This document shows positions 187 through 38,684 of a stretch of DNA of 64,000 nt, piece by piece (the first letter of the stretch is position 1; each line of letters begins with the position of its first letter). The stretch spans positions 13,752,026 to 13,816,025 of the forward strand of contig CM038924.1 in assembly GCA_021904315.1 (NCBI GenBank), written 5' to 3'. The translations under genes were made by a program, and so were the position numbers. This stretch comes from Sphagnum magellanicum (Eukaryota; Streptophyta; Sphagnopsida; Sphagnales; Sphagnaceae). The notes under the pieces are model-generated. The model worked only from the letters and a program-made list of their open reading frames with translations. It did no database searches and had not been told where the DNA came from.

Positions 187-190
187 GATT
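187..190. repeat. Target-site duplication GATT (partner 9181-9184)
   Basis: GATT precedes the element and GATT follows it at 9181-9184. The paralogous unoccupied site at 36835-36838 reads GATC followed by the same right flank. A 4-bp duplication is within the 4-6 bp normal for LTR retrotransposons. Confidence 0.75.
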
Positions 191-322
191 TATCGTGCCT
201 GTACATGGCCTCATACATGATGACTAGTTACGGGCATGCCCATGTGCGCTTTTAGGGTTAATGTACGATTTTAAGCGACTATACGTTATTAGGTACTTAG
301 GGTTTTAGTTGGTTGATGGTAG

Positions 323-330
323 TATAAAAG
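323..330 (+). promoter_or_regulatory. Probable TATA box of the retroelement promoter
   Basis: TATAAAAG lies 132 bp inside the left end and is followed by a CT-rich stretch suited to a start site about 30 bp downstream. Position and sequence suit the U3/R border of a plant LTR. No experiment supports it. Confidence 0.55.
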
Positions 331-769
331 GACAAGCCCTTTCTTTCTCCTTTTAGTTTTTCTAGAATTCCTTTGTCAAAAGAGTTTCTCCATAATAAGC
401 TAGGATTTATAGATGCTCACGGCGGCCATTGCATGGCCACTGTCTACATACATTTCATTTTCTTCTTTATTTGCAATTCAATTCTAGAAAAACTTCACTT
501 TATGTGCTTCATGTTGAAAGCCACATATTTCTTTTGCTTGTAAGTTCTTGAGTTATTATTATTGTTGCTATTGTTGTTACTGTTGGTGTTGGTGCTGTCG
601 AAGGGGGTTGGCGTTATTACAAGGAGTTGGTGTTATGCCAACTAATAGAGCCGGAAAACAGGTTTCGAATCTCTCTCCTTTCTCTCTTTCTCGCTCTCTT
701 TTTTTCTCTTGAAACTGTCTAGTAAAAAAAAAATTAACAAAAAACAAATATTTCGACAGCCGTCACCTG

Positions 770-1090
770 CCATTGTTGCAGAGCAACAAAGCGCTTCCTG
801 CCATCACTAACGCTGCTCGCCATCATTGCATAGTGCGCTGTTGTCTGCCGTTGCCGCGAGTTACAACGCCACAATGCTGCAGCATCGCAACGTTGCAAGT
901 TGTAGCGCCATAGCACCACAACACTGCAGCATCGCAAGCTGCAGTGTTGCAGCACCATCACTACAGTAACAACAGCGCCGTGGCGCCATCGCTGCAACAA
1001 TAGCAGCGCCGCAACACCATCGCTGCAACAACAACAACATTGCAAGCTACAACGCCATCGTTGTTGCAACATTACAAGCGACAATGCTGC
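770..1090. repeat. GC-rich triplet-like repeat tract (GCAACA/GCGCCA variants)
   Basis: Imperfect reiterations of GCAGCATCGCAAC, GCGCCATAGCACC and CATCGCTGCAACAA fill this stretch, in sharp contrast with the AT-rich surroundings. Open frames on either strand here are compositional by-products. Confidence 0.7.
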
Positions 1091-1109
1091 CATCACTGCG
1101 ACCTTGGTT

Positions 1110-1490
1110 TATTCGACGTCCATTTGACTTTCGTCGGACTCTTGTCGGATGATTCATTCAAGTCCGTCTGTCGAACTTTCGTCCATCCAGAGACTTTTGT
1201 CCGATGTTCGTTGGACTTTCGTCCTGCGCCCTATCGTCTTACGTCATGCGCCCTACCATCATACGTCCTACGCCGTGCCATCCTGCAGCTGCCATATACA
1301 TCATACGTCCTGTTGTTTTGCGTCTTGCGCCCTATTGTTTTGTGTCCTACGCCCTACCATCCTACGTTCTACCATCTCGCATACTGTTTTTTCATCCTGC
1401 ATTTTCATCTGACATCTGTTTGATTTCCATCCAACCTTCGTCCGACTTTCGTTAGACGTTCGTTTGACCTCCATGCGATGTTTGTGTGTC
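1110..1490. repeat. Degenerate CGTCC/GCCCTACCATC tandem tract
   Basis: Short units such as TTCGTCC, GCGCCCTACCATC and CATACGTCCTACGCC recur many times. With the preceding tract they make a repeat-built, CpG-rich leader just upstream of gag. The open frames over this tract are low-complexity artefacts. Confidence 0.65.
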
Positions 1491-1598
1491 ACGGGTCATT
1501 CCTAACAACGCATTGTATTCTTCAAACTATACGTTGTGTGAAAATTTTATAGTTAGTGTTGTGTACTATCACAAAATTTTGGGGCATGGGACAACACC

Positions 1599-3089
1599 AT
1601 GTCTTCGGATGATGATAACACTACCGCTCAACCAAAGCCCAGGTATCAACTACGAAGTAACACACAATCCTTTGAGCCGATTTCTTTAAGCTCACGATCT
1701 TCACAACGATACCATCAAGTGTCTAGAGCACCATTGTCATCTAGTACAACTCCTACCAAGAATTCAGGCTCAGGTTACATTACATCAACGGTACATCAAA
1801 GTCCATTTGGAGGGGCTCATCAGTGGGGTATGCCTGTTACCGCACATACTTTCATACCATCACCGTATATTCGATTACAAACTATGATCTCAACACCCAT
1901 ATACACCATGGAGGTCATCAGTTCTTCTGGGAGAATTGAGAAGTTCAGCGGAAGGCCAAGTACTATTTCTTTGAGGGAGTTCGAGTCAACTTTCTCAATT
2001 GTGGTTTGTCAATTGGAGCTCAAGTATGACGCTAATTACATCGAGGCGTTTGCATTCAAACAATTGGCTCGTTATGTGCACTATGAAGCATTGGATGTCT
2101 ACGAGCAACATTCCGCAAGGATTTTGGGCGTCACCCAAATTTCCAATCTAGCTTATGCCACAGCCATTACCACCACCTCTCAAGCTGCATTACAAGCTGT
2201 AATTGCACATCACGGGACTATGCCCAATAATCCAGACTTGGTACCTACCTCAGTAAACCTTTCTCCTCAACAACTCATTGTTGTTGCCGCAAACATTCCT
2301 CCCACCACTGATGCGCCAGCTTTTGCTGATCCAGTGGGAGAATTCTTTTGAGTTCTTGAGCTAGAATTTCCAATCAAAAGTTTTGAAAAAATTCTGCAGC
2401 TTGCCACCTTCTCTCGGCAAAAGGATGAAACCTTCAAGATGTTCTATAGGAGGCTTCTCAAACTCGAAGAGAATACCCAGAGCATCACAGACTTGGAAGC
2501 TGCCCACCGGTATCTTTGTTCGTTGGAAGGTACTCCAACACTCCACACATAGGTTTTGCAACGAGTCTTTGCAGAATTTGGAGACTCATACACTTTGCTG
2601 GATGTGTACAACATTTTCGAAAAGCTGGAACTGGCTCATGCACACTATGAGGCTAGTACTATGAGGCTTCCATCACGTTCAAGGCCTCAACCTACACCAG
2701 CTGCGCCAACTAGATCATCACATTCTTCTTCAAGGACTAAAGCGGTGCACTCAGCTACACCCATCCTACCTTCTTGCAACTACTGTGGCAATCCTGCCCA
2801 CAAAGCTAGTGAATGCAACATTCCTTCCGAGGATGTCTTTTGTGATTATTGTGGGAAAGAGGGACATCAGGAATCGGCTTGTTTTGCTAAATTCCCAGAG
2901 CGGAAGCAATTTCGATTACAACGGCAAAATCTGCCAGCATTTTTCGTTGTCCCTCAACCAAAAGCCAAGGCAACTCAGCCTTCCACTCAGGCTTTGCCCA
3001 CCAAGGGTAATTCCAACAAGAATGCTAAGAAGAAGGAGCACAATGTTGACAAGAGGGAGGTGCTTCAAGCCCATGCAATTCAAGTTTAA
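1599..3089 (+). pseudogene. gag polyprotein of the methyltransferase element, two CCHC zinc knuckles
   Basis: Gag makes the capsid/nucleocapsid of the cytoplasmic virus-like particle that packages the element RNA. From the ATG at 1599 one frame runs on, broken by TGA at 2349 and TAG at 2551, to TAA at 3087. The middle (about 1920-2560) has the hydrophobic/aromatic pattern of a Retrotrans_gag domain. Two CCHC knuckles follow, C-x2-C-x4-H-x4-C, at 2775-2816 and 2841-2882, with every ligand intact. A basic Lys/Asn tail follows. The same frame continues into the protease, as expected for a gag-pol fusion. The stops look like point decay, since sequence similarity of style continues past each one. 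Family assignment is by domain order rather than a search. Confidence 0.8.
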
Positions 3090-4420
3090 ACTTTACAAAA
3101 TGAACTCGAATCATTAAGGGCTTAACTTGCTAATCTAAAAGGCAAGTCCTCCCAACGAGCTAGTCATGCCGAACCTGTACAAGGTTCAGGATCACGAGAG
3201 GGACCTCCTAGGTCATTCTATGGCCTTCCACACGATGCCATGGTTGGGGAGTATGTTCTTTCCACTCCACACAATTCTAGTCTCACACCAGAATTTGCTA
3301 CTTCTTTTTACCCTTCCTATGTCGCGACACAAGAAGCTAGTGTGGCACCTAGAGTTTCTACCACTAGGCAGGTAATTCAGACTGATGGACTTGCATCTGG
3401 TTCAAGTCCTATTACCAGGGCTAGAGGAGCTTGAGTAGTCATGCCACAATCTTTTCGTCTTCTCAACATGGAAGAAGAACGCACCTTGTTGGCAAGGTGG
3501 GAAAAGACTACTACACCATAAGCTATTAAGGCATCAAATTCTTGTGTCCTAGGAATACATGTACATTAGGAAAACACACAATTTTTCACTGATCAGCTTA
3601 TGGAATGCCAACTTCAAATGCATGAAGTGGCGCAAAAGCTTGTGAGTACACCATTGTTTAGTTTTCAAGATTTGAAGCAAAGCACCAGGGACATAATTGC
3701 AATTTTAAAAGATACCTTGAACACTACATCAGGTCCTCTACCAATCTCTGATCCACATGCTACAGAGGTCCCATCCAACACCTTGAAGATACATTCAATT
3801 TGTTCACGTGTTGTAGATGGCGTTCATAATCTAGTTACTAGTTCTAGCATGGTTAAACTAGTGGGCTTTCCTACTTCTGATTCCACATTCACATATCAGA
3901 AGGGAGTTCAAAACACCTCACTTGTGGATTTGTTACTCAGCAAAGGTGTTGTGGATAGCCAATCTCTCCACAAAGTCTCTCACTCATTTCCGAAGGTGGT
4001 GCCTAATGAGAGAACTTCCATCGCCACCAGAGTTGCCATTGTTGACAATATTGGGTCAGCAATCCAAGTGGGAGGACATACACCCAGAGTGGTACTTCTT
4101 GACACAGGTGCCCAACCAGTGATTCTTGGAGTTTAATTCGCCAAGAAGATGGGCATGCTTGACTCCAAACTACGGAAATCTATGTGGCAAATTCGCACTA
4201 CTAGTGGGAGTGTAGAGGAGGTATTTGGGGAAAGTTTGGATTTGATTGCACTTAAGTTCAATGAAGGTACAGATCAGGAACTTTGCTTACATGTCAGATG
4301 TTTAGTCACCAATGCCACCAGTTATGATGTGCTCATTGGGCAAGAGGCCCTGTTTCCACCAGGTTTCACAATTGACAACTGGTTTGAAAATGCGTATTAC
4401 GGAGTGGATTGGGAGACTAA
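3090..4420 (+). pseudogene. Linker and aspartic protease region
   Basis: The gag frame continues here through several more stops (3087, about 3120, 3432, about 3519, about 3567, 4134). The first part is a Ser/Pro/Thr-rich linker with a short leucine/glutamate-rich stretch just after 3090. The protease signature LLDTGAQ is at about 4095-4115, with catalytic Asp codon 4101-4103. A flap-to-core stretch continues past the TAA at 4134, ending in a hydrophobic SYDVLIGQEAL motif near 4320 that matches the ILG/ILI helix of retropepsins. The enzyme would cleave the gag-pol precursor. Around 4420 the reading shifts from frame 3 to frame 2, which carries the methyltransferase. Confidence 0.7.
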
Positions 4421-4549
4421 TGGCCACCACCTGGGATACATACCCTTGATTTACATGGGAACCATAGTCCTATGGCTCACCATTGTATGCTCAAGGAAGC
4501 ACACACCATTTCCTACATCTAACAAGCTAGCCACGAATGGATAGAGGGA

Positions 4550-5660
4550 GATGAGGAGGAGATAGCTTACACTCAAGCTATTGAAAGCTTGAAGGTGATT
4601 CCTACTGACATTCAACATGGACCAGAGGTTTTATAGAAGTTCAAAGTAGCCCACAAGCCCTTGGTCAAAACTTTATCTAATTTTGAGAGCATGGAGAGCC
4701 ATGGTGAACCGATTAAACCATTACTTCGTCAGCTAATCACCTAAACACCACCTAAGGAAGGGATAACATTACTAAAGCTCCTTGGTGGTATTGGTACAGG
4801 TTTCGAAGCCCTATTACAGTCAGGGATGGTGGTTCGGAGGTATTTTTATGTAGACATTGGTCCTATTGCAAGGCAAATGGTGGCATCCAGAATGAAGGAG
4901 TTCACAACAAGATTTCCACAACAGTTTGCAACCACTGCATGGAAGGTTAGTTTCACATTTTTTCCCTTTAACCTCATCATTTTAGGTTGGGAATGTCAAG
5001 GATTTTCAACGACTAGATTTGGAGAAGGCTTGAGTGACACAAGATCTGGTCTTTTCACGGACATGATACGATTGATCACCTAGGCTCAGTCCATTTCTCC
5101 TACACTTGGTTATGTAATTGAGAACACCCCTTCTCAGTTTGATCAGAGGGAGAAAGTCCAGGAGCACTACACACTAGTCAAGCATTACCTTGGAGAGCCA
5201 CTCCTACTTTATGCGGCACAATGCGGTTCCTATGCGCACTGGCTGCGCAATTGGTGGACCAACTTGGCACCACTCTTAGTTCTACAGCTGGCTCTGAAAT
5301 ACACTATCAGAGACCCCAACCTTCAGGTTTCTCACATATTGGATGATCAAAGTTCTTGCCAACCAATTACAAGGCAAGAGAAACCTCGTTGGTTTCCTAC
5401 GAACACAATAGGAAAACCAAGAGATGCTTAGCCCACCTTTGTCTCCTTCCTAGGAGCACATGCCTTTCAAGGAGATGGACCAGGTCTGGTGTATTGTCAT
5501 GCTTCAGCCACTTGGGATGAACCAAGCCCAGAAGAAAGAGAAAGGGCTATGGGGTTCCAAACTGGCACTACTAATCACACTAAGGTGACTAAATTAAAGC
5601 GTAATGCTCTACTGGGGAGAGGCATGGACTTGAACTCCCTTACATGGTTGTTGGTAACTT
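4550..5660 (+). pseudogene. C5-cytosine DNA methyltransferase domain embedded in the retroelement polyprotein
   Basis: The domain transfers a methyl group from SAM to C5 of cytosine in DNA. Conserved motifs follow in canonical order in one frame. Motif I is LLGGIGTGFEALL (4778-4816). Motif IV is GWECQGFS with catalytic Cys at 4994-4996, where the usual PCQ reads ECQ, followed by the family-typical GLSDTRSGLF. Motif VI is VIENTPS near 5114-5134 (usual ENV). Motif VIII is QCGSYAHWLR at 5219-5248, with Trp where the second conserved Arg usually lies. Motif IX is PSPEERERAMGF (from 5525) and motif X is LLGRGMDLNSLTWLL, ending at 5653. Four in-frame stops (4634, 4742, 5081, 5429) kill this copy. 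The linear I-to-X order argues against descent from plant DRM enzymes, whose motifs are rearranged. No BAH, chromo or UBA domain is visible, so MET1 and CMT are unlikely as whole-gene sources. It sits between protease and RT, so it was part of the polyprotein. Confidence 0.88.
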
Positions 5661-6030
5661 GTGTACTCTTTCAAATGTACACAATACCAACATTGATTCA
5701 ATCAGCTTGCAGTTTTGGTGATGCGACCACATGGCACCCCGACCAAGTACACTTGCCTATCTTCAACACTTTACATTTCACTTTTAGTGTTGGGGGGGAG
5801 GAGGTACCATGTAATTTGACTCAAGTTGTGCTTAATACACCTGGAGGTACATCGACTTCTGGAAAAACAATTACAACCTTCTATGAATCTGTGGAGTTGG
5901 ATAGTGGAGAACCAAATACACCAGGTTCTTCAAACACACTTTCCAACTCCATTCCATGTGTTTTTGACTACCCTTTCGTTATGGGGAACCAACTCACCAA
6001 GAAGGAGAAAGGCCAAGTCATAAACTTGCT
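5661..6030 (+). other. Linker between methyltransferase and reverse transcriptase
   Basis: About 120 codons stay open in the methyltransferase frame (frame 2) and lead into a KKEKGQVINLL-like stretch near 6000, which resembles the segment just before the RT fingers in gypsy polyproteins. The Ser/Thr/Gly-rich middle around 5830-5960 has no recognisable fold. The frame changes near 6030. Confidence 0.6.
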
Positions 6031-6860
6031 AATAAGTATGAGAATGTGTTTGCATTCTCAATGAAAGACTTAGGTAGGTGTAAGACCATGCAGTTTTCTA
6101 TAGACCTTACAAATGAGACACTCGTCTATCGGAGGAGGCATAGGTTAAGCAAGGATGAGTGGGAACTAGTAGATGAAAGATGCAAAGAGCTCCATGAGGC
6201 TGGTCTCATTCAGCCATCAAATTCTAATTTCGCAACCGCTACAGTAATGCCAGCAAAGAAAGATACAATTGGATTAAGAAAAGGATGTGCGGGGATTATA
6301 GGCCTTTAAACCTAGTTACACCTCAGGATAGGTACCCCATGCCCATCCCTGAAGAATTGTTTGATAGCATTAGAGATTCAAACATCTTCACAATTGTGGA
6401 TCTGAGGCAAGGCTTCAACTAGATTGTGCTCGCTGCGAAGGATCGCAAGAAAACAGCATTCCATGGAAGCAACAAGTTATGGGAATGGCTTGTGATGCCT
6501 TTTGGACTGAGGAATGCACCTGTCTTCTTTCAACAAGTCATGGAACATGTTCTTAAAGGGGCAAATTTCCTGAAGTGCTACATAGATGACGTCCTAGTGC
6601 ATAGCAAGGGACTCGTGCAGCATTTGGCTCATCTTGAGGAGTTATTTAAGAGGCTCCACGAAGTCAATATGAAGATCCATCCTAAAAAGTGTGAGTTTGT
6701 TGTCACCCCAGTAATCTACCTTGGACATAGAATTTTGCCAAATGGTATTATGGCTCATTGGGCCAAAGTAGTAGCCATTTTGGAGATGCCCAATCCTATT
6801 GATGTTCACATGTTGAGGAGCTTCATTGGACTATGTAATTACTACAGAATTTAAGTCCAA
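6031..6860 (+). pseudogene. Reverse transcriptase of the methyltransferase element
   Basis: RT copies element RNA into cDNA inside the particle. The fingers motif ending in LIQPSNSNFATATVMPAKK lies at about 6195-6260 in frame 1. The reading then moves to frame 3 at about 6291, where a DYRPLN motif is followed by PMPIPEELFD. MPFGLRNAP lies at about 6495 and the catalytic box YIDD at 6579-6590 with both aspartates intact. The thumb region, with the YLGHRI motif, lies around 6718-6735. In-frame stops occur at about 6420 and 6852. The order and motifs are those of Ty3/gypsy RT. Confidence 0.85.
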
Positions 6861-7480
6861 GATTTTAGTACTATTGCTCATCCTCTCTATGCATTGTTAA
6901 AGAAGGATGTTACTTGGACATGGAGTGATGAGACTCAAGAAGCTTTCAACACACTCAAGGAAAAACTTTCAGAGTTCCCCATTCTGAAAAGACTTGATTT
7001 CAACAAGGTCTTCATTCTACACACTGACTGGAATGCTCTTGGTATTGGAGCTATTCTTGGCCAACTTGATGAGGAAGGCAAGGAATATGTTATTGCCTAT
7101 GCATCTTGAAGCAACAACAAGGCTAAAAGCAACTACTCTTCATACGAGGGGGAGTGCCTTGCTGTTGTATGGGCTGTCATACATTTCAGGCCCTATCTTT
7201 ATGGCACCAATTTCACTTTGTATACTGACCACTAGCCTATTAAGTGGTTGATGACCAACGATAAGCTTATTGGTAAGTTAGCTCGTTGGGCGCTTATACT
7301 TTAAGAGTATGAGTTCAAGGTTATTCACCAACCTGGTATTACACATCAGAATGTGGATACCATGTTGCGAAAACCCCTCACTACCTTTGAAGATTTTTCA
7401 AAAGCCAGGCAAGATTTTGACCAGATTCCAGTAATACATGTATTTGAAGCATATAGTTATCTTGCACTACTGTAATGTAA
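6861..7480 (+). pseudogene. RNase H domain
   Basis: Frame 3 continues with WTWSDETQEAFNTLKEKL, the usual connection between RT and RNase H. The first catalytic aspartate region reads ILHTDWNALGIGAIL near 7012-7056, where gypsy elements usually have TDAS. The catalytic glutamate lies in [14 protein letters not shown] near 7137, and a third aspartate in LYTD near 7220. TGA at 7107 and stops near 7232 and 7301 interrupt it. RNase H degrades the RNA strand during cDNA synthesis. Confidence 0.75.
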
Positions 7481-8616
7481 CTTGGTTGAGCATCCCATTC
7501 TGGATATATGGGAGGACTTGAACACTCTGAGGTTTCTTCAACATGGGGAATACCCTCCCCAAGTTACATCAAGTCAGTGGGATCGCATACAATAGCGGTC
7601 CAAACACTATTCATGGAGGGACAATCACTTCGTCGGATGCTTACCACAAGGCGACAGAGTGGTTCCACCACCACATGAACGGCCTAGTCTTATTCAAAAG
7701 GTACATTCAGAGCTTGGAACATTTTGCAGTTAAGCGTACTTATAGCCTTCTCGTTCCTCATTACCATTGGAGAGGTATGTATGTTCAAGTCCGAGACATC
7801 ATTGTTAGGTGTGAACAATGTGATAGAATGAGAACTTCTTTCTCCTTTCGATAGCTCACACTTTCTCCACTCCCTATTCAGGGCATGTTCTATCGTTGGT
7901 CATGTGATTTAGTTGGAGAATTACCACAAACCTCCAGGGGTAATGTTTACATCATGATTATGATTGAGCATTTTTCAAAGTGGGTTGAGCTTGTTGCGCT
8001 ACCAGGCAAGTCATCACACAGCACCAGCCAGGCTTTCTTACAACAAATTCTAAGTAGGTTTGGGGCTTGTGCTAAGTGCCTTACTGATCAAAGGTCAGAA
8101 TTCAGGGGAGAATTCCAAAACCTACTTGACCATGCTCTCATTGACCATCGTCGGACTTCAAGAGATCATCCCCAAGCTGATGGCCTTGCAGAAAGGATGG
8201 TTCAAATGTGCAAAAAGGGACTTCAGAAAATTTGCCTCACTAAGAACAAAGAGGATTGGGACCTAGCCCTCCCATACATCGCCTTGGGTTGCAAGATGTC
8301 CAAACATGCCTCTTTATCTCATTTCTCTCCTTACTTTTTACTTTTTGGGATACATCCCATTCCACCCTCTTCCATTACTACTCAAATGGACCAAGTTGTG
8401 GACTTGAACTCCCTAGCCACTTGGGCTAAGGTCATTGCAGAAAAGGCTGCTCTATTCAGGAGGGTTATGCCCATGGCCATGGAGAATCTATCCATTGCAC
8501 AACATCAAGACACCTTACAGTATACACACACACAAGGTGGTAGTTACAAACCTAAGGTGAGACAATTTGATGTTGGTGATTTTGATATCTCCAACGGCAA
8601 CCAAATGATACTTTAG
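7481..8616 (+). pseudogene. Integrase, HHCC zinc domain plus DD35E core
   Basis: Integrase joins the cDNA to chromosomal DNA. In frame 1 the second histidine (LEHFAVKR) and the cysteines (CEQC, near 7812) of the HHCC domain are visible; the first histidine lies in another frame upstream. The core has Asp at 7906-7908 (CDLVGELP), Asp at 8086-8088 (LTDQRSEF) and Glu at 8191-8193 (GLAERM). The last two are separated by 34 residues, the DD35E spacing. All three acidic residues are intact. A stop lies at 7852, and the frame changes again between about 8600 and 8640, just before the PHD segment. Confidence 0.85.
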
Positions 8617-8639
8617 ACACTTCTTCCGGTTGCACTATC

Positions 8640-8951
8640 TTGAGGATTAAGGCGATCAGGCCTTTAGGTGTGTTGGAGCTGCAAGGAGCTGACGGACGCA
8701 CAATTCAGGATCATTCCAAAAATTGTGCGCCTTGCCACCTGCCAAACTTGGATCCTACCATCATCACGTCGACTTGGATTCCTCCACTTGATTATCCATG
8801 TCAGGTATGTCAAAGGACGGACGATGCTGATCAAATGTTGCTTTGCGACAACTGTAATGGTGGATACCATCTCTTTTGCCTCAAGCCGGAGCTCATTCAA
8901 ATTCCCACCGGCAATTGGTACTGTTCATCATGTTCTCCCACAGCACCTTGA
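8640..8951 (+). pseudogene. Integrase C-terminal tail with PHD finger
   Basis: This 103-codon open stretch begins with an IRPLGVLELQGADG segment like the end of a gypsy integrase and then carries a complete C4HC3 PHD finger at 8799-8933. The ligands are CQVC, CDNC, YHLFC and WYCSSC, and all eight are intact. The conserved Trp lies two residues before the last CxxC. PHD fingers commonly read the methylation state of the histone H3 tail. Here it takes the place of the chromodomain that chromovirus-type elements use to direct integration, so targeting to particular chromatin is inferred. The stop is the TGA ending at 8951, close to the polypurine tract, so it is the polyprotein C-terminus. I label it a pseudogene because the parent polyprotein is broken; the finger itself looks undamaged. 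Confidence 0.85.
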
Positions 8952-9180
8952 TTCCTACTTAGACAATGCCGCGCTTTTCCCGGCTTAGGTCTAAGGGGGG
9001 GATACATGAGAATTTCATCTCAGCCTCCTCTTGTGCATTGTATATATATGTGTGTGCGTGCATCTCTTTTTGGTTGATTAATTTATACCTTTGACTAGCT
9101 TTAATCTTTTTGTTTAGTAGAATTTAATACAGATTTACACCCTTACGACACCGTACGTCATGACACTACACATCACGACA
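8952..9180 (+). other. 3' terminal region with polypurine tract (presumed truncated or divergent 3' LTR)
   Basis: A polypurine tract AAGGGGGGGA lies at 8993-9002, the usual primer for plus-strand synthesis directly before a 3' LTR. The remaining 178 bp end in CATCACGACA at the target duplication. It includes a TG-rich stretch near 9040. It has no TATA box and no visible long match to the 5' end, so the 3' LTR may be internally deleted. Confidence 0.55.
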
Positions 9181-9184
9181 GATT

Positions 9185-17661: not shown

Positions 17662-18050
17662 TTGAAATAATCTGAAACGTTCAATTCAAAGACTTGGATG
17701 ATCTTATATTATGGCATGTGGCCCAATGTAAATATGCCACGTGGCATTTAAAAAATTAATTTAATAAAAATATTAATATTAGGTTGGTAGGTACCTTGGT
17801 AGGTACATAAATAGGTGCCTACAATCCTTACCTACCTACCTACCTACCTAAGTAAAAAAATAAATAGGTAGGTTCTACCTTCGTAGGCTAAATACTTGTT
17901 CATCTTTCATACAACATTCTTTGTCATTTGCGACTAGTTTTCACATGTGACTTGTCTTAGGCGACTAAAAGGAATTTAGTTGCAAAATGTTTGTTGCAAC
18001 TAAAATTTAGTCGCAAAGAGTAGTCGAAAATACATGTTTTTCTTTTAGTG
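17498..18050. mobile_element. Rearranged CACTA end, copy 3 (inverted piece plus right terminus)
   Basis: 17498-17890 is the reverse complement of the right part of CACTA copy 1 (about 13400-13785), including the ACCT cluster and the ATTATT run. From about 17900 the sequence turns to direct orientation and matches 13790-13923 through to a terminus TTTCTTTTAGTG at 18050. No left terminus is found. The element end abuts gypsy gag at 18051 and block A at about 17496, so this marks a rearrangement breakpoint. Confidence 0.75.
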
Positions 18051-18838
18051 ATCCAAGGATGCGAGATTTCAATCGGCCAAACTTGGGAACTTCGATGGTG
18101 CTTGCAACCAAAAGGTTGTGGATGCTTAGCTTGCCAAAATGGAAGATTACTTGCATGCCGCCAAGGTTGGATGGCATTCGGCCGTGGAATTTGCCCAATT
18201 TTACTTGAAAGGTTATGCCGCCACATGGTGGAGGATAGTGAGACAAGAGGAGGGGAAAAACCATGGCTACACTTGGGAATTCTTTAAGGAACGTGTCAAA
18301 GCTGAGTTTGTTCCAAGGAATTCCAATTACATCTCGAGGTGCAAACTCCGCGACCTTGTGAATGCCACAAATGATAACTTGCGGCAATATGTGAGGGCTT
18401 ACTCCGAGCTTATGCTTGAGATCCGGCACAGGCATGAGCTGGATCCAATGTGCCAATTTGTGATGGGACTTCCCACTTGGGTCAAGCAAAAGCTTGAGGA
18501 AAATTGGCCTTCCTCACTATCCGAAGCCATCATGAAAGTGGAAGGCTTCTTGAATGTGGGACGGGGTGAAAAATCTGGGTTCAAGAAGGACAACAAGTTC
18601 CTTCACAAGAAGCCACGCCATGAAGGAGAATGGAATCGAGGGTAAGGGAGCCCGAGGAAGGAAAAGCCTAAACAATTCCAAGGCTTGGGGTTCAAGCCTA
18701 AGGGAAACTTTGTGAAGAAAGGGGCTCCCTTCAAAGGGAGCTAACCCAAGGGAAATGTTGGTTGGAAGCTTAAAGGAACATGTTTCAATTACAACGAAGT
18801 GGGGCATTACTCCAAATATTGTCTTAAGTCCAAAGGGG
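18051..18838 (+). pseudogene. gag of the chromovirus element
   Basis: The capsid domain is recognisable by KVDAW-like to ATWW motifs (ATWWRIV near 18217) and by the LRQYVRAY and FVMGLP stretches. The zinc knuckle near 18782-18823 reads C-x2-Y-x4-H-x4-C, so the second cysteine has become Tyr, one G-to-A change from Cys. Stops lie at 18127, 18643 and 18742. The 5' end is lost at 18051. Frame 1 continues directly into the protease. Confidence 0.85.
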
Positions 18839-19380
18839 GGAATGGAGGCTTTAAGGTAATTGCCCTTAATGCCAACCTAGCCCAAGCTGAATGCAATCGA
18901 CTTATCTTCTTAAAAGGGAAGATTGCTAAGCGGGATGTGTTATGTCTTTTGGACACAAGGGCTTCTCATAACTTCATAACTCGAAAGAATGCCGAAAGGA
19001 TGGGGCTCCCCTTGGAGGAGCTCGAGGCACCCATCGAAGTGCACTTCGCGGATGGGGTTCCCCATCTTACTACATCACAAGCAAAGGGAATGCCTCTTCA
19101 ACTAGGTAATTGGAGAGGAAAGGTGGACTTGTTAGTTTCCGCCTTAGGGGGAATGGATTGCGTTTTGGGAATAGAGTTCATCACCCAAAACAATGTGCTC
19201 ATAGAAGGGCACAATAGACTAGTTAGGATTCCTTCCAAAAGTGGGATCATGAAGGTGAAGGCACACGAGATGCCTTGTGTGGGTGGGCCAACCATCCACT
19301 TTATGTTAGGAAAAACTTGGGAAAGAGAATGTGTGGGAGGTTATGGCATGTTGTGTATCATGCGGGTGTTGGATGAGTAT
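18839..19380 (+). pseudogene. Aspartic protease of the chromovirus element
   Basis: The active-site motif reads [11 protein letters not shown] with the catalytic Asp codon at 18952. The glycine of the usual DTGAS is replaced by Arg (a G-to-A change would do it), which should inactivate the enzyme. The second conserved helix motif (DCVLGIEFI) lies near 19156-19182. The protease is fused in frame to gag upstream and RT downstream. Confidence 0.8.
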
Positions 19381-20745
19381 GAGCCCAAAGAAGCTGTCAA
19401 CTTGGTGATTTCCCCAAAGTGCATTAAACAAGTCTTAGATGAGTTCCCGGATGTGATGCCCGAAGAGTTGCCCGCGGATTTGCCCCCGAGAAGACGAGTT
19501 GATCATGCAATCGAGGTGATGCCCGGAGTGGCACCTCCCACCAAGGCCCCATATCAAATGAGCCATGAGGAGTTGAAAGAACTTAAAGTTCAACTCGAAG
19601 AACTCCTCACAAAGGGATACATTAAACCTAGCAAGTCACCATATGAGGCACGCGTCCTTTTTGTTCACAAGAAGGATGGGACGTTGAAGATGTGCGTGGA
19701 TTATAAAGCCCTCAACAAGGTAACGGTGAAGAACTGATACCCCTTGCCTCGAATTGATGACCTCTTTGATCGACTCTCGGGAGCTAATGCGTTTAGTAGG
19801 ATTGACCTATGCTCGGGATATTACTAAATTCGGATTGCAGAAAGGGATGAAGAAAAGACCGTTTGCCACACAAGGTATGGCTCATATGAGTTCTTAATGA
19901 TGCCTTTTGGGTTCACCAACACACTCGCCACATTTTGCACTCTCATGAATGACATTTTCTGGGAATGGTTTGATGACTTTGTAGTTGTCTACATAGACAA
20001 CATTTTGATCTATAGTGGCTCTTTGGAGGAACATGCAGAGCACTTCCGGAAGGTGTTCTAAAGGCTGAGGGAAAACAAGTTGTATGCCAAGCTCGAGAAG
20101 TGCGAATTCGGGGTGACGGAAGTGGGCTTCCTTGGACATAGGATCACTCAAGAAGGTTTGAAAATGGATGATCACAAGGTGAAGGCAATTTTGGATTGGG
20201 AACCGCCTAAGTCGGTTCTGGCCTTAAAATCCTTCTTAGGGTTGGCCTCTTATTATCGCAAGTTCATTAAGAACTTTACGAAGATGGCCGCACCCTTGAC
20301 AAACCTTTTGAAAAAGTCCGCCGAAACTTATGAATGGGATGAAGCATGCGACGAAGCCTTTGAAACCTTGAAAGGCATTTTGGTGAAAGCACCAGTGTTG
20401 AAGTTACCCGACTTCAACAAGGATTTTGAGATCCACTCCAATGCCTCCGACTTTGCAATTGGAGGAATCTTAGTGCAAGAAGGAAAACCAATGGCATTTG
20501 AGAACAAGAAGTTGAGTGAGATAGAGCGAAGGTGGCCAACACATGAGAAAGAAATGTGAGCAGTCATACATTGTCTCGAGACTTGGGGCCATTACATAGG
20601 CTCCAAAGATGTGGTGGTGTGGACCGACAATGTGACCTTGAAGTACTTTGCCACTCAACCCAAGTTGTCCTCAAAGCAAGTGAGATGGCAAGACACATTG
20701 GCCTTGTTCAATGTAGATATTTGACACAAGCCCGGGAAAGATAAT
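19381..20745 (+). pseudogene. Reverse transcriptase and RNase H of the chromovirus element
   Basis: The RT fingers motif [16 protein letters not shown] is at about 19639-19680. YPLPRIDDLFD follows the TGA at 19735, and MMPFGFTN is at about 19900. The catalytic box at 19990-20001 reads YIDN instead of Y-x-DD, so a catalytic aspartate is lost. The LGHRI motif is near 20132. RNase H begins after FIKNFTKMAAPL; its first acidic motif reads HSNASDF where TDASD is usual, and the WTDN motif is near 20620. Stops lie at 19735, 19825, 20059, 20557 and 20722. No frameshift is needed anywhere. Confidence 0.9.
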
Positions 20746-21704
20746 GTGGTGCCCGATGCGCTAAGTCAAAAGCACCAACTTAAAGTGGTGTATGTGGGGG
20801 AGATAAAACTTCAAAAGGAAGTTCGACTAGTGAGCCGTCATGACCAATTTGCCAAGGAAGTGAGGCAAAACATTCAAAATGGAACCAAGTCCCACTTCCA
20901 AGTACGAAATGGACTATTATGGTATAAACAAAATCAGCTCTATGTTCCGAAAGGGAGGATGAGGGATGTGCTCTTGAAGGAATGTCATGATGGGCCACTT
21001 GCGAGCCATGGTGGTGCAAAATGCACCACAACATTCCTTAAGAAGTCCTATTATTGGCCAAACCTGAAAGATGATGCAAAGGAGTATGTGAAGACTTATT
21101 TGACATGCCAACAAAATTGGAGCCTTAACAAGAAGCAAACGGGTTTGTTACAACCTTTGCCAATTTTTGAAGGGCCGTGGGAGAGTGTGTCCATGGATTT
21201 CATGGTAAGCTTGCCCCCATCAAGGGGTTTTGATGCCATCATGGTGGTGGTGGATCGATTTAGCAAGATGGCACATTTCATTCCCACCAAAGATAGTGCC
21301 ACGGCCCAAGAGACGGGAAGGTTGTTATTCACACATGTTTTCAAGCATCATGGCCTCCCAAAGGACATAGTCTCAAATCGAAACCCAAAGTTCACAAACA
21401 AGTTTTGGTGAGCCCCATGGAAACGAATGGGGTCGAAGCTCAAGATGAGCACTTCCTTCCGCCCCCAAACCGATGGACAAACCGAGAGGGTGAACTTGGT
21501 CATCTAACAATTCCTTAGGAATTATGTGGCGGCAGATCAACAAGATTAGGTGGACCACTTGGAATTAGCCGAGTTTTGTTACAATAACTCGGAACACTCT
21601 GCAACTGGGTCCACCCCTTTTCAAATGGTGACGGGCAAGTCACCAATTGTGCCCATGACTTGGGCAGCACATGGACAACCCCCGAGTGATGCAAGTGAAG
21701 AAGT
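20746..21704 (+). pseudogene. Integrase of the chromovirus element (N-terminal and core parts)
   Basis: The zinc domain keeps both histidines (CHDGPLASHGG) and one cysteine (LTCQQN), while the other cysteine position reads Tyr. The core keeps Asp in SMDFMVSLP (near 21195), but the second catalytic position reads IVSNRNPKF with Asn in place of Asp. The Glu in TERVN (near 21481) is intact. Stops lie at 21409, 21505 and 21547. CACTA copy 2 splits the gene at 21704, and the coding frame resumes in phase at 24770. Confidence 0.9.
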
Positions 21705-24700
21705 CACTAGTAGAAATCAGCCAAAATGTAACCAGTCAATTTACGACTACATGCGATTTATAGTCGTTTGCGACTAGATTTGAGAATATTTGCAACTACA
21801 AGACCAACTTTCAACTATTTTGGTCATTTTCACAACTATGATGTAACTATTAGAAATTTCATCCTATTGGTTACATCAATTTTACATTTATTTTCATCCA
21901 TTAATAGGTTGATATGTCCCATTAGTCACAATAATCACCAAATTAGTTGCATCCTAAAGGTATTCTACAATGACATACAGGTATATTTTAATGTATGTAC
22001 TATATATATATATATATATGCATACATATGTATATTGTTCATATAATGAATCGCAAAATTAATATTTGAACTTTGAATTTTTTTATTCAAATATGAATAT
22101 TGATATTTCAATTATGAAAAAATGTTATTTTAACTTTTTAAAAATTTTATTAAAATTTGAAACTTGATATTTGAATTTGAAAATTTTGATTGAATATGAT
22201 ATTTTCAATTCAAAAAGACTGATTTGATCTAAAAATTGATTTTGAATTCTAAATTAATATTTTCAAATCCAAAAATTAGTATTTCAATTCAGAAAACTAT
22301 AATTGATCACAAAAATGGATTAATTTGAATATTCCATTTAATTTTGAGTATTTTTATGTGAATATGAAATTTATATTTCAGCTATGAAAATTTTTCATTT
22401 ATATTTTAAATAATCATTTAATTCGAACCTGAAATTTAGATTTTCAAAATTAATACTTCAAGTCTGAAAATTAGTAATTGAGTCTAAAAATGGACATTTC
22501 AATTTTGAATATTGTTATTTGAATATGAAAATTAACATTTCAATTCTGAAAATTTTTATTTAAATTCAAAAAACTTTTTTGAATTCAAAAAACGTTTTTG
22601 ATCTAAAAACTGATATTTGAATTCTAAATTATTTTTTTTGAATCTAAAAATTATTATTTAAATTTAAAAAACTTTATTGACTCTAAAAATTGGCAACTTC
22701 ATTTTAAATATTTTTATTTCAACTTGAAATTTGATATTTGAATTTTGAAGTTTAAAATTTTAATTTTAAGAAATTATTTGACTTGAAAGTTGAAATTGGA
22801 ATTCCATATTATTATTTTGGATTCTTAGAATTAATATTTCAATTCAGAAAATTAATAATTAAGTCTTCAAATGCAAATTTTAATTTTGAATATTATTATT
22901 TGAATCTGAAAATTAACATTTCAATTCTGAAATTTCTTATTTAACTTCTAAAAACTTCTAAAAACCAATATTTGAATTCTGAATTATTATTTTGGAATCT
23001 TACATTTATATTTTAATTCAAAAAATTATTGATTGAATTTCAAGGGTTTTTTTTACTAGTGCTATCCATAATAAATCACTTTTATAAATAATTATAAATG
23101 ATTATGTTTTTAAAATCTAAGTGATACTAAATAATTATTGTTATGACATAGATTTGTATATTATATAATTTATATTATTATATTAGAAGAAATTAATTAA
23201 ATAAATTAATGTGACATTACTTTAAAATCATTGTAATTACTTCATATAAGAATTAATTAGTATGTGCATAATTATTTTCTAATTGAACATAATTATTCAC
23301 ACTCTTTAATTTATAACTTCAAACCTAAATTAAAAATTTGGAAAACATTATAGTGTAGTTGGAATAATTATTTTACTGATTTTAATTTCACGAATTATTA
23401 TACAATAATATTATCTTAAAAAATTCTGTGATTAATCATCTATGATAAATATTTTATAGTAATTTTATAGTAATTATGAAAATAATGTTATGTTTAACAA
23501 ATTATTTGATTTATAGTTAATAATTACCAAGAGAAAAAAATTATTTGACCTATAATAATTTTTACAAGAATAAATGTTATTATACAATAAATAATGTAAT
23601 TAGTTGAATAATAATTCTTCAAAATTTTGTGTAAGAATTTACTTCCTGATAAAAATATTTAATTCATTATATATAATTTTAAAATAAATATTTAAAATAT
23701 TTAATTAAAAATTATAACCATTAAATTTATTTCATATTAATTATATTATGTATAGCTCGATGAAGAAGGTATTACTTATTTAAGTAATTGATAATGAATA
23801 TTGAATATTTGTAGTGTATAGTTTATAATTTAAATATATGTAAATTTCATCATTATGAACTAAATGATTATTTAATTATTTAATACTTGAATTGTTTAAA
23901 AATCTAAAAACCCAAAAAAATAAGGGATGAAGAAAGCTTTGGAATTACAACTTAGTTTGTAAGGAGGTTGCAACTTTAAAACTTATCCCATATTGTTTGT
24001 TCTCCATTACTATTTTGAACACTATATAAACAAAGGGGTGTGCCTATGCAATTTCACATTAAGAAGTTTGTGCACATGGGATGAGCTAATCAAAAGGCTC
24101 AACCCAAAACAAAAAAACAAATAATGCACAATTCTTAAGTACATACCTCCCCAACCTACTTATCTATCTAGCTAGGTAGGTACCTAGTTTGACCTACCCA
24201 TCTAGGTCAGCCTATGTACCTACCTATTTAAGTACCTACTTTTAAGAGTAGGTATTTAGCCTAGGAAGGTAGAACCTACCTATTTACTACTTTACCTAGG
24301 TAGGTAGGTAGGTAAGGATTGTAGGCACCTATTTATGTACCTACCTAGGTACCTACCAACCTAATATTAATATTTTTATTAAATTATTTTTAATGCCATG
24401 TGGCATATTTACATTGGGCCACGTGCCATAATATAAAATCATCCAAGTCTTTGAATTGAACGTCTTAGATTATTTCAAAATAATAATAATAATAATATAA
24501 ATAATCATATATTAAAACATGTGGCAACACATGATTTGCCTTGAATTGTGACCAAAATAGTCGCATATTAGTTGCATGTGACAATACGTATACAATGGAG
24601 TCAAAGGATGAAATGTATTTGTTGACTTTATACTCTTTGTCATTTGCGACTAGTTTTCACATGCGACTTGTCTTAGGCGACTAAAAGGATTTTAGTTGCA

Positions 24701-24766
24701 AAATCTCTCTTGTGACTAGAATTTAGTCGCAAAAAGCAGTTGAAAATACATGTTTTTCTTCTAGTG
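21705..24766. mobile_element. CACTA-type non-autonomous element, copy 2, nested in integrase
   Basis: The element is 3,062 bp with ends CACTAGTAGAAA and TTTCTTCTAGTG and the 3-bp duplication AGT (21702-21704 and 24767-24769). It is very similar to copy 1 over its whole length. It lacks about 109 bp present in copy 1 (after 12820, at a CGAT micro-homology) and has about 40 extra bp near 22110. It has no transposase. Close similarity of the two copies argues for fairly recent mobility. Confidence 0.93.
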
Positions 24767-24769
24767 AGT

Positions 24770-25343
24770 GTTATTGGTCACACAACTTGATGAAGAAAGG
24801 CAATGCCTTTGGGAGTTGGCAAAGGCCAACTTGGAAAAGGTGCATAAGAGGTACAAGGATTTTGCGGACAAGTTTCGACGAAAGGTGAAGTTTCAAGAAG
24901 GGGATGAAGTGTCGTTGAATGTCAAGAATTTTCGATTGCCAGAAGGTTTGAGTCACAAGTTCTTGGGCCCATATGCGGGCCCATTCAAGGTGTTGGAAAA
25001 GAAACTTTCCGACACTTACAAGTTAGAACTACCGAAAAATCTTAGGGTTCACCCCACATTTCATGTTTCTTTTTTGAAGCCAGTCGCTCGTGATGCCTTA
25101 AGGCCTAATCGGGAGCACAACTCAAGGCCCCCACTAAACTTGGTTCATAATGAACTAGAGTTTAAAGTGGAGGCCGTGCTCAAGTCAAGGCAACTAAGAG
25201 GACGAGAACGTCAATACTTAGTGAAGTGGAAAGGATACCATCCAATAGAGGCATCTTGGGTGAATGAATCCGATATGGAACATGCCCAAGAAGCCATAGA
25301 TGAATTCCACACTAAACTGACAAAGAAAAGACGTAGAACATGA
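24770..25343 (+). pseudogene. Integrase C-terminus with GPY motif and chromodomain
   Basis: The polyprotein resumes here and stays open for about 190 codons to TGA at 25341. FLGPYAGPFKVL (near 24960-24995) is the GPY/F module. VHPTFHVSFLKP follows. The chromodomain covers about 25158-25313: EFKVEAVL, the aromatic-rich YLVKWKGY, and the ASWV motif are all present. Chromodomains bind methylated histone H3 tails and steer chromovirus integration to heterochromatin. This module has no stops. Confidence 0.92.
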
Positions 25344-36648: not shown

Positions 36649-38684
36649 AATTGGCTATGCACACCTCTTTCTTGCTACCCTTATAACTTCCTTGCTATGA
36701 GCATACCCTTGTTTTTGCATAATAGTATGTTACCTACCTCCATCCTTGGAATAATTTTTTTCCCACAACAAACATTCATCTCCTTCTAACATTCACAAAA
36801 TCACCATAGCAGTGGAAATGCATCCCATCCAATCGATCCGTCACCAAGAACACTCAACCCTAAACCTAAGTTCACTAAGTTCATTAACCTTGAACCAAGT
36901 TTGCTAATCCCAAGAATGTTCAACCCTAAACCTAGGTTCATTAAACCTTAATTCATCGAATGTTGTTGTGTAGTAGAATTGAATTGCGAGCCCCAAACTT
37001 CGTTCCTGCCTTCCTTACTCTCCTCATCAAACTAGCATTCTAGTTACTTCTTTCAAAAATTTGGGCTTGTACATCATCTTTGGGAGGTACCAATCAGGAT
37101 GCAAAATGTTAAATTTGTTTCCTCCTCGTGTTTCTCAAAGCTCCTTGAAGCTCCTGGTTGTTGGCTCCTCGATCTTGCTCCTGGTTGTGAAGCTCCTTTT
37201 GACCCTAGTCATTGGCTCTTCTTATTCTTGGTTTGCAATTCCTCTTGCTCCTAGTTTGAACTCCTCTTGTTCCTAGTTAGCAGTTCCTTTTGCTCTTGGT
37301 CAAAGTTCCTTTTGCTCGTAGTTTGCAACTCCTCTTGTTGTTGGTCTATAGCTCCTCTTGGTCCTAGTCAGAGCTCCTTTTGCTCCTAGTTGGTAGCTCT
37401 TTTTGTTCCTAGTTGGCAACTCTTCTTACTCTTGATTGGCAGCTTTTCTTTCTCCTAGTCTTTGGCTCTTCTTGGTCATGGTCTAACTCTTCTTGCTCTT
37501 GGTTTGCAGTTCTTTTTTATCATGGTCGAAGCTCCTTTTACTCCTAGTTCGCAACTCCTCTTATTGCTAGTCTATAGTTCCTTTTAATCTCGGTTAGAAC
37601 TCTTCTTGTCTTGGTCGACAGCTCCTCTTGCTCCTAGTTTCTAACTTTTCTTAATCATGGTTGAGCTTGTCTGACTTTTGGTTTATAATTTTTCTTATTC
37701 CTGGTTGGTACTTCTTCTTGTTCTTAGTGGTAGCTCTTCTTGTTCCTAGTTCGTAGCTCATTTTGCTCTTGTTCTACAACTCTTCTTGGTCCTGGTCAGA
37801 ACTCCTCTTGGTCCTAGTTGGTAGCTCTTCTTGTTTTTGGCTTCTAGCTTTTCTTGATCTTGGTTTAACTCTTCTTACTCTTAGTTTGGAGCTTTTATTG
37901 CTTGTAGTCAAAGCTCCTCTTACTTTTGGTTTATAGTTTTTCTTCCTCTTAGTTCAACTCCTTTTGTTCATGGTTCACAACTCTTTTTGTTCTTGGTTGA
38001 AATTCCTGTTGCTCTTAATCGTGTTAACTTTTCTTACTCCTGGTCTATAGCTCTTCTTGCTCCTAGTCGTAGCTCCTCTTGTTCTTGGTCATTGGCTCCT
38101 TTAGCTCTTAGTCGTGTAACCCTTCTGAGTTCTTATTCCTTGGAGCTTTGGGTCCCCACTCTCTTTCTCCCATCCCTTGCCCCTTTTGATATATTTAAAC
38201 AATTGTAGCACTTGGCCATGCAACATTCGTAGATGCATGGGTCATTGCTACATTTCTTGGTTGATTTGGTGTTGCATTGGCTATTGCAACAATTGGTGAT
38301 GGAGTCGGTGTTACATTGGCTACTACAACACTCATTACTCCACTTGGCATTGAATCATTTTGTTGCATTCTTGATCTTGTTATTGCTCTTGCTTATTGTT
38401 GACTAATACTTGTGATCCCCAAATTAAGTGTTGTTTCACCTGTGTGTAGGCTTGTGGTGATAGCTGTCTAGATGTTCTAATGCAATCAACCACAAGTTGA
38501 TCTTATTGCTATAGGGGACCATTATGCATCAAAGGTGGTTTTGGCTTGCTTCGTAAGCTTTCACAAGGTTGCCCACTCTGCTGAGGTTATGGTATAACTA
38601 TATAGGACCATTGTGCATCAAAGGTGGCTTTAGTTTTGCCTTTTAACATCTCATAGGGCTTTTTCTTCTTCCAAGGTTGGGGTA
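36649..38684. repeat. Block B: unoccupied target sites and TCC-rich minisatellite
   Basis: Paralogue of block A. GATC at 36835-36838 is the counterpart of the GATT duplication around the methyltransferase element, with flanks running straight on. About 37145-38135 is the same minisatellite as 9440-10335. TTA at 38685-38687 is the unoccupied counterpart of the CACTA copy 1 site. Confidence 0.9.

What the first reader, a model, noticed from the sequence alone, without database searches (positions are those of the whole stretch)
4550..5660. A retrotransposon that carries its own C5 DNA methyltransferase
Between protease and RT lies a domain with motifs I, IV (catalytic Cys at 4994-4996), VI, VIII, IX and X of C5 cytosine methyltransferases, in canonical order and in one frame with its surroundings. 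Retroelements with captured methyltransferases are, as far as I recall, reported from dinoflagellates and the charophyte alga Klebsormidium; one in a land-plant-like genome, fused inside the polyprotein, would be notable. An element that methylates DNA could silence competitors, hide its own cDNA, or control its own copy number; these roles are inference.
Basis: partly seen in the sequence, partly recalled or inferred. Interest (0 to 1): 0.95.

Follow-up and report, generated by a model that had tools for sequence, protein, structure and literature searches.

The report
Moss retrotransposon carrying a DNA methyltransferase
A family of jumping genes in peat moss carries, inside its own replication protein, a domain of the kind that puts methyl marks on DNA and another of the kind that reads histones, and the shape of its copies suggests that it enters the genome from circular DNA.

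Summary
Confirmed. The window holds a decayed copy (191-9180) of a Ty3/Gypsy retrotransposon in peat moss (Sphagnum magellanicum, by contig-length match). Between protease and reverse transcriptase lies a DNMT3-type cytosine methyltransferase, here broken by three stops and a 48-nt deletion. A search of the genome scored 119 of 1,075 candidate places; 10 of the 119 hold the whole domain without a stop, and in one copy a single 2,379-codon frame carries protease, DNMT, RT, RNase H, integrase and a C-terminal PHD finger. DNMT and RT of the ten look constrained (dN/dS 0.25 and 0.30; neutral simulation 0.69-0.89). A second family, with the usual PCQ active site, lives in the same moss; relatives occur in Marchantia and Calypogeia. 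The window's family has Glu where motif IV normally has Pro. Copies end TGTC...GACA with 4-bp target duplications and come as A-int-B or A-int-B-GC-A-B, as if 1-LTR or 2-LTR circles had been opened at an integrase junction inside the LTR. Closest published relative: KnitGypsy-Dnmt3 of the alga Klebsormidium. New here, as far as searched: land plants, PHD finger, ECQ site, junction anatomy. Enzyme activity, circles and methylation of own cDNA are unproven.

The parts
187..190 (+). left target-site duplication GATT
   Evidence: GATT at 187-190 and 9181-9184; uninterrupted paralogue of the host repeat at 36649-38687
191..482 (+). repeat A, starting TATCGTG (TGTCATG in related copies); carries a TATA box and, by inference, R/U5
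   Evidence: blastn to the A repeats of L045, L047 and L050; termini; right border at CAAT|TCTAG
323..331 (+). TATA box TATAAAAGG; transcript start inferred near 355
355..369 (+). inferred 5' fold-back primer AGTTTTTCTAGAATT, perfect 15-nt complement of 480-494
   Evidence: inverted repeat I3
480..494 (+). primer-binding site at the A/interior border (self-priming, inferred)
1599..3431 (+). gag with two CCHC zinc knuckles, broken by stops
   Evidence: frame-0 pieces; zf-CCHC E 0.0025, 18.2 bits, below the 20.8 cut-off
4080..4440 (+). aspartic protease (DTGAQPVILG; SYDVLIGQEAL)
   Evidence: by eye; the window pieces hit no Pfam family; the same region in L048 hits PF13975 at 28.2 bits, equal to its cut-off
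4745..5693 (+). DNMT3-type C5 cytosine methyltransferase domain, ECQ of motif IV at 4991-4999, pseudogenised here
   Evidence: class from relatives
6000..7460 (+). reverse transcriptase and RNase H (frameshifted)
   Evidence: PF00078 E 2e-22 on 6423-6851, PF17919 E 3.1e-17 on 6855-7106; the piece 5968-6306 gave no family
7531..8613 (+). integrase: H2C2 zinc domain and rve core
   Evidence: PF17921 E 2.2e-9, PF00665 E 1.6e-12
8586..8948 (+). C-terminal piece with PHD finger, CQVCQRTDDADQMLLCDNCNGGYHLFCL...WYCSSC
   Evidence: PF00628 E 2.3e-13; a first try in the wrong frame gave none; PDB best WSTF 4.3e-16
8993..9001 (+). polypurine tract AAGGGGGGG directly before repeat B
   Evidence: B starts at 9002 by the repeat boundary
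9002..9180 (+). repeat B, ending CACGACA
9181..9184 (+). right target-site duplication GATT

Best explanation
The locus is an old insertion of a Ty3/Gypsy-type element whose Pol carries a DNMT3-class methyltransferase (between protease and RT) and a histone-reader-type PHD finger (after integrase). Inferred cycle: transcription from repeat A; the transcript's 5' end folds back onto the A/interior border and primes itself; the polypurine tract before B sets the other end, so the complete cDNA is [B-GC-A]-interior-[B-GC-A]. The cDNA is closed into 1-LTR or 2-LTR circles. The DDE integrase recognises the abutted ends GACA-GC-TGTC in the middle of the LTR, opens the circle there and inserts with a 4-bp duplication, giving A-int-B (1-LTR circle) or A-int-B-GC-A-B (2-LTR circle, able to be copied again). 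The DNMT most likely methylates this cDNA before or during integration, and the PHD finger most likely steers the complex to chromatin by the histone H3 tail. Shown by sequence: domains, repeats, ends, target duplications, constraint, copy number. Inferred: self-priming, circles, methylation of own cDNA, PHD ligand.
Against: No activity, expression or circle was observed. The window's family has Glu for the Pro before the catalytic Cys (30 of 30 best copies), which might weaken or abolish catalysis. The Klebsormidium enzyme gave no methylation in yeast, which its authors call inconclusive (PMC5890265, passage). CpG observed/expected of five recent copies (0.34-0.40) and the window copy (0.36) shows no clear depletion against an open frame in the window (0.23) or another retroelement (0.52). 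A-int-B could also arise by B1 x B2 recombination. Of the 8 further A-int-B candidates 1 had unequal flanks (CAGC/CAAT) and 2 could not be placed. 65 of 99 A|B joints have no listed B-GC-A junction 200-450 bp upstream (that pattern allowed 1 mismatch only and its printed list was cut). The automatic fold-back test found nothing in L046 and L050, where it took a TATA outside A; the printed stretches show the pairing in L046 and a changed site in L050. The ten copies for dN/dS were picked for protein score and open frame, which lowers dN; nine copies with two or more stops still give 0.311, four of the ten have stops in RT, and the protease stretch gave 0.392 with an odd codon-position pattern.
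Confidence: 0.53

Rival explanations
1. The DNMT domain of the window's family no longer methylates (ECQ site). It is kept as a nucleic-acid-binding or structural part of Pol, while the PCQ families are the active enzymes.
For: Glu replaces Pro in 30 of 30 best copies and in Calypogeia P0036, so it is fixed, not decay. Klebsormidium DNMT without detected activity in yeast (PMC5890265, passage).
Against: Cys is kept in 30 of 30; motif I, EN of motif VI, AH of motif VIII are kept in the 16-row alignment; dN/dS 0.25; E-type motif IV also occurs on other branches, P0157, P0197 and P0203, which suggests tolerance rather than loss.
Confidence: 0.3
2. Both insertion forms come from one linear cDNA of the DIRS/PAT type (A-int-B-A-B), and A-int-B copies are secondary losses by recombination between the two B repeats; no circle is needed.
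For: A-int-B-A-B copies carry target duplications (4 of 4; L091). A solo A-B copy with nearly equal flanks GTAT/ATAT exists (L064, 1 of 12 loci), so repeat recombination does happen.
Against: 19 of 34 copies with exact A borders show no B-A-B tail in the lists, and the copy with one 2,379-codon frame is A-int-B with its duplication; a linear end at A-start would not be the end that the polypurine tract at B-start sets.
Confidence: 0.35
3. The DNMT acts on the host: it methylates rival elements or host loci rather than its own cDNA.
For: Many copies in one genome; SymbioDIRS enzymes methylate yeast chromosomal DNA (PMC5890265, passage).
Against: Fusion inside Pol beside RT and integrase places the enzyme with the cDNA (inference); the Klebsormidium methylome is like that of land plants (PMC5890265 section 9).
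Confidence: 0.15
4. A host DNMT gene or retrocopy lies by chance inside a retrotransposon in this window only.
For: None found.
Against: 119 scored places in this genome; polyproteins with DNMT in Calypogeia and Marchantia.
Confidence: 0.01

Closest known systems
KnitGypsy-Dnmt3 of Klebsormidium nitens (de Mendoza et al. 2018, PMC5890265; parts 1-2 of 7, section 9 and passages read)
   Same: Gypsy domain set with a non-rearranged DNMT3-class domain inside Pol; DIRS-like repeat order stated in the Fig. 4 legend; constraint on the DNMT.
   Different: Host is an alga; 'phd' does not occur in the main text; ends, target duplications, two insertion forms and self-priming are not described in the parts read. 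Its sequence was not in hand, so direct kinship is untested. The paper reports an acquisition in the K. nitens lineage.
SymbioDIRS-Dnmt3 and SymbioLINE-Dnmt of dinoflagellates (same paper)
   Same: Retroelements with a C5 methyltransferase; the DIRS type shares the A-B-A-B repeats; both tested DIRS copies methylated CG in yeast.
   Different: Tyrosine recombinase or LINE endonuclease instead of a DDE integrase; independent captures by the paper's account.
Chromodomain and Tudor Gypsy elements of Ectocarpus, and chromoviruses (PMC12477816, passages read)
   Same: Histone-reader domain fused behind integrase.
Tf1/sushi self-primed retrotransposons (recalled, no paper read)
   Same: 5' end of the transcript complementary to the primer-binding site at the U5 border.
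   Different: As recalled, Tf1 integrates at its LTR ends and has neither DNMT nor PHD.

Membership tests
KnitGypsy-Dnmt3-type elements | Gypsy Pol (PR, RT, RNase H, DDE integrase) with DNMT in the same polyprotein | tested here: met
KnitGypsy-Dnmt3-type elements | DNMT3 class, not rearranged | tested here: met
   motif order I to X; profile and fold nearest DNMT3A/B among solved chains
KnitGypsy-Dnmt3-type elements | DIRS-like repeats A-coding-B-A-B | tested here: met
   L045, L047, L049, L050 and L091; other copies, the window's too, are A-int-B
KnitGypsy-Dnmt3-type elements | Ka/Ks of DNMT below 0.2 | tested here: inconclusive
   0.254 over 45 pairs; neutral simulation 0.69-0.89
KnitGypsy-Dnmt3-type elements | sequence kinship with the K. 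nitens element | not tested
   no row named for K. nitens among the listed hits
DIRS elements | tyrosine recombinase | tested here: not met
   rve integrase present; no Phage_integrase in the Pfam scan of the 2,379-aa frame
DIRS elements | no target-site duplication (recalled) | tested here: not met
   4-bp duplications
Ty3/Gypsy LTR retrotransposons | domain order PR, RT, RNase H, INT | tested here: met
Ty3/Gypsy LTR retrotransposons | the same complete LTR at both outer ends | tested here: not met
   outer ends are A (left) and B (right)
C5 cytosine methyltransferases | catalytic Cys preceded by Pro (recalled) | tested here: inconclusive
   Cys 30 of 30 and Glu 30 of 30 in the window's family; Pro in the PCQ families
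C5 cytosine methyltransferases | methyl transfer to cytosine | not testable with these tools
   needs a bench assay
Tf1-like self-priming | 5' RNA end complementary to the primer-binding site | tested here: inconclusive
   complement present: 15 nt in the window copy and L047, 13 nt in L048, L001 and L091; the RNA start is inferred from a TATA box, and not at all in L001 and L091

The most novel reading that the evidence does not exclude
A lineage of Gypsy elements in bryophytes with a DDE integrase that integrates from closed cDNA circles by opening a palindromic junction (GACA-GC-TGTC) inside the LTR, and whose Pol both writes DNA methylation (DNMT3 type) and reads histone H3 (PHD). The CG sites in the terminal repeats (CACGACA / TGTCGTG) would let methylation mark or license the very ends that integrase uses.
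Probability: 0.35. Interest if true: 0.88.

Novelty: new variant of a known kind. Interest (0 to 1): 0.74.

Why it matters
[quoted passage not shown] Here they are found in a moss genome in many copies, and 15 of the 120 listed rows are Marchantia proteins and 3 are from Calypogeia. Moss tissue is easy to grow and to sequence for methylation, so the question of why a retrotransposon would carry the enzyme that hosts use to silence it becomes testable in a land plant. The two insertion forms give a sharp, checkable prediction about circular cDNA and integrase.

Tried and rejected
Ordinary LTR pair in the window copy: none found; explained later by the A/B ends. Kinship with bacterial or viral enzymes: genome contigs gave 5 loci, of which 4 are Streptomyces with short matches of 32-46%; viral contigs gave 0 with P0001 and 1 at 32% with A1. 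The two Streptomyces rows in the tree fall outside the 28 others (100/100); the viral one was not put in. 'Bacterial' rows: the contig L001 from a Synechococcales MAG carries gag, protease, DNMT, RT, integrase and PHD and is best read as contamination; P0088 (Obscuribacterales MAG) groups with it (81/66) and is read likewise, by inference. CpG depletion as a trace of self-methylation: inconclusive. Tree: 53 rows met a length rule among 205 proteins and some loci, 30 were kept after an 82% identity cut; the deep order of families is open (fork of 28). Placement by tree against host MET1, CMT, DRM or DNMT5 was not done, only by profile and fold against PDB. Copies lacking DNMT were not searched for. 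The broken window domain alone gave DNMT3A at only 0.001. Foldseek's viral library was not used. No DNMT1, CMT or DNMT5 row is among the 50 printed, which excludes nothing. No paper in the library was found that reports C5-DNMT retrotransposons in bryophytes or a PHD finger in a Gypsy Pol; mostly listings, with passages of PMC12477816, PMC9033089, PMC6338049 and PMC12344493. Split direct repeats with a DDE integrase: listing only.

Full report
Observation. The window region 4745-5693 encodes, in one frame, motifs I, IV, VI, VIII, IX and X of a C5 cytosine methyltransferase, with the catalytic Cys codon at 4994-4996 (motif names recalled). Pfam PF00145 passes its cut-off on the 112-aa open piece; two further pieces give no family alone. 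The copy is dead: in-frame stops at 4742, 5081 and 5429 in the domain, two more just upstream, and 16 codons missing before motif IV when set beside related proteins (by eye). Protease and most RT pieces lie in other frames now.

Host. The genome that holds the window has 438,994,042 bases in 31 contigs. Its contig C15 has 18,169,471 bases, exactly the length given for the contig of P0050, named Sphagnum magellanicum CY35_15G039600. The window is therefore from peat moss, a land plant.

The element. A paralogue of the surrounding repeat at 36649-38687 lacks the insertion and shows its borders: 191-9180, flanked by GATT. Inside are gag with CCHC knuckles, protease, DNMT, RT, RNase H, H2C2 and rve integrase, and a PHD finger at the C-terminus, PF00628 E 2.3e-13. 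The PHD finger's best solved relatives include WSTF, KMT2D, CHD4 and KDM5 fingers; that several of these bind H3 with unmodified K4 is recalled, not tested.

The family in the genome. A DNMT-domain query scored 119 of 1,075 candidate places. Ten of the 119 hold the whole domain without a stop, in open frames of 487 to 2,379 codons. One frame of 2,379 codons holds protease, DNMT, RT, RNase H, integrase and PHD in order. Among 45 pairs of the ten stop-free copies dN/dS is 0.254 for DNMT and 0.303 for RT (four of the ten have stops in RT); neutral simulations with transition bias give 0.69 to 0.89; a protease stretch gave 0.392 with an odd codon-position pattern. Nine copies with two or more stops give 0.311. 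The copies were chosen for score and open frame, which biases dN down; RT, not chosen for, gives a like value. All 30 best copies keep the Cys, and all 30 have Glu before it.

Relatives. Protein searches found 250, 715 (8,000 candidates scored) and 13 (8,000 scored) hits; at most 120 were listed. Named sources are Sphagnum compactum, magellanicum, balticum and troendelagicum, the liverworts Calypogeia fissa and Marchantia polymorpha, one Obscuribacterales MAG, and one EukProt protein in which DNMT lies between RNase H and integrase, with a PHD finger. A tree of 30 rows puts the ECQ sequences of Sphagnum and Calypogeia together (100/100) and a PCQ group with Sphagnum, Calypogeia and Marchantia together (100/100, 7 rows); the deep order is open. 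The PCQ family is present in the same moss genome: a PCQ query scored 119 of 1,172 candidates; about 40 of these places are not among those (by eye), and three of them, 66-68% identical, are full length and stop-free.

Ends and repeats. Copies have a 5' repeat A (about 290-315 bp) and a 3' repeat B (about 180 bp) that starts right after the polypurine tract. Two forms occur. A-int-B-GC-A-B has 4-bp target duplications in 4 of 4 copies (TAGG, CAGC, AACT, GTTC). A-int-B has them in the window copy (GATT), L046 and L048 (TGAC, CTCT) and in 5 of 8 more, chosen from the 19 without a tail; of the other three, one had unequal flanks and two could not be placed. Of 34 places with the exact A|interior border, 15 have a B-GC-A junction or A|B joint 8-11 kb downstream (the junction list typed in had 93 entries, as only the first places are printed, so 15 is a lower bound). 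Conversely only 34 of 99 A|B joints have a listed junction 200-450 bp upstream. Genome-wide counts are 106 strand hits for the junction with up to 1 mismatch (palindromic ones twice; control 0), 99 for the A|B joint (control 0) and 188 for the A|interior border (control 6). Of 12 loci cut at an exact A|B joint (of 21 exact ones), 11 are preceded by B and a 2-bp spacer (GC in 9; AC and GT once each; L065 judged by eye) and one, L064, is a solo A-B. A repeats are 98.7 and 99.0% alike in L050 and L047, so those insertions look recent. The same junction, a G-rich tract, the PHD finger and the target duplication TTTC occur in a PCQ copy, whose frame is cut by stops (L091), and the junction, tract and PHD in L001, a contig with a 127-bp exact terminal overlap, i.e. 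a circular assembly, which repeats can also cause. Junctions in Marchantia and Calypogeia were not examined.

Reading. If the polypurine tract and the fold-back primer site (15-nt complement) set the cDNA ends as in other LTR elements (general knowledge), the LTR in the reverse-transcription sense is B-GC-A. Integration ends TGTC/GACA then lie inside the LTR. A 1-LTR circle opened there gives A-int-B; a 2-LTR circle gives A-int-B-GC-A-B. This explains both forms with one rule, and the exact A|B joint as the LTR-LTR joint. Recombination between repeats is the main rival for A-int-B.

Function. A DNMT fused to the replication and integration machinery most simply acts on the element's own cDNA. 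The authors of the Klebsormidium and dinoflagellate study propose cDNA methylation and showed CG activity for two DIRS-type enzymes, with the Klebsormidium enzyme inconclusive (PMC5890265, passages). For the window's family the E-C-Q site leaves activity open. Whether the mark shields circles, licenses integration or limits copies is not decided by these data.

Literature. No paper found in the library reports such elements in bryophytes or a PHD finger in a Gypsy Pol (searches; listings and some passages); most subscription papers and all bioRxiv preprints are not held. PMC12344493 (passages) cites the earlier report for streptophytes and dinoflagellates.

Noticed in passing
L001 (contig CADCWO010000201.1): A 9.3-kb eukaryotic DNMT retroelement with a 127-bp terminal overlap sits in a 'Synechococcales' MAG used as a species representative; P0088 in an Obscuribacterales MAG looks like the same kind of contamination.
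   Followed up: partly
G000:C4:3308682 and 3309170: Two B-GC-A junctions 488 bp apart in one copy, as if from a circle with three LTRs.
   Followed up: no
P0204 (EukProt): Related polyprotein with DNMT between RNase H and integrase instead of between protease and RT, with a PHD finger; its RT is 34-38% and its DNMT 37-42% identical to the six others compared, while the others' RTs are 43-70% alike.
   Followed up: partly
window 18000-25340: A second Gypsy-like element with open pieces for gag, protease, RT and integrase and a piece that looks like a chromodomain by eye, split by AT-rich repeats.
   Followed up: no
window 57058-58701: 547-codon open frame with a CCCH zinc finger by eye, probably an exon of a host gene.
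   Followed up: no
G000:C20: Copies also lie on a 4.7-Mb contig, possibly the sex chromosome (recalled).
   Followed up: no
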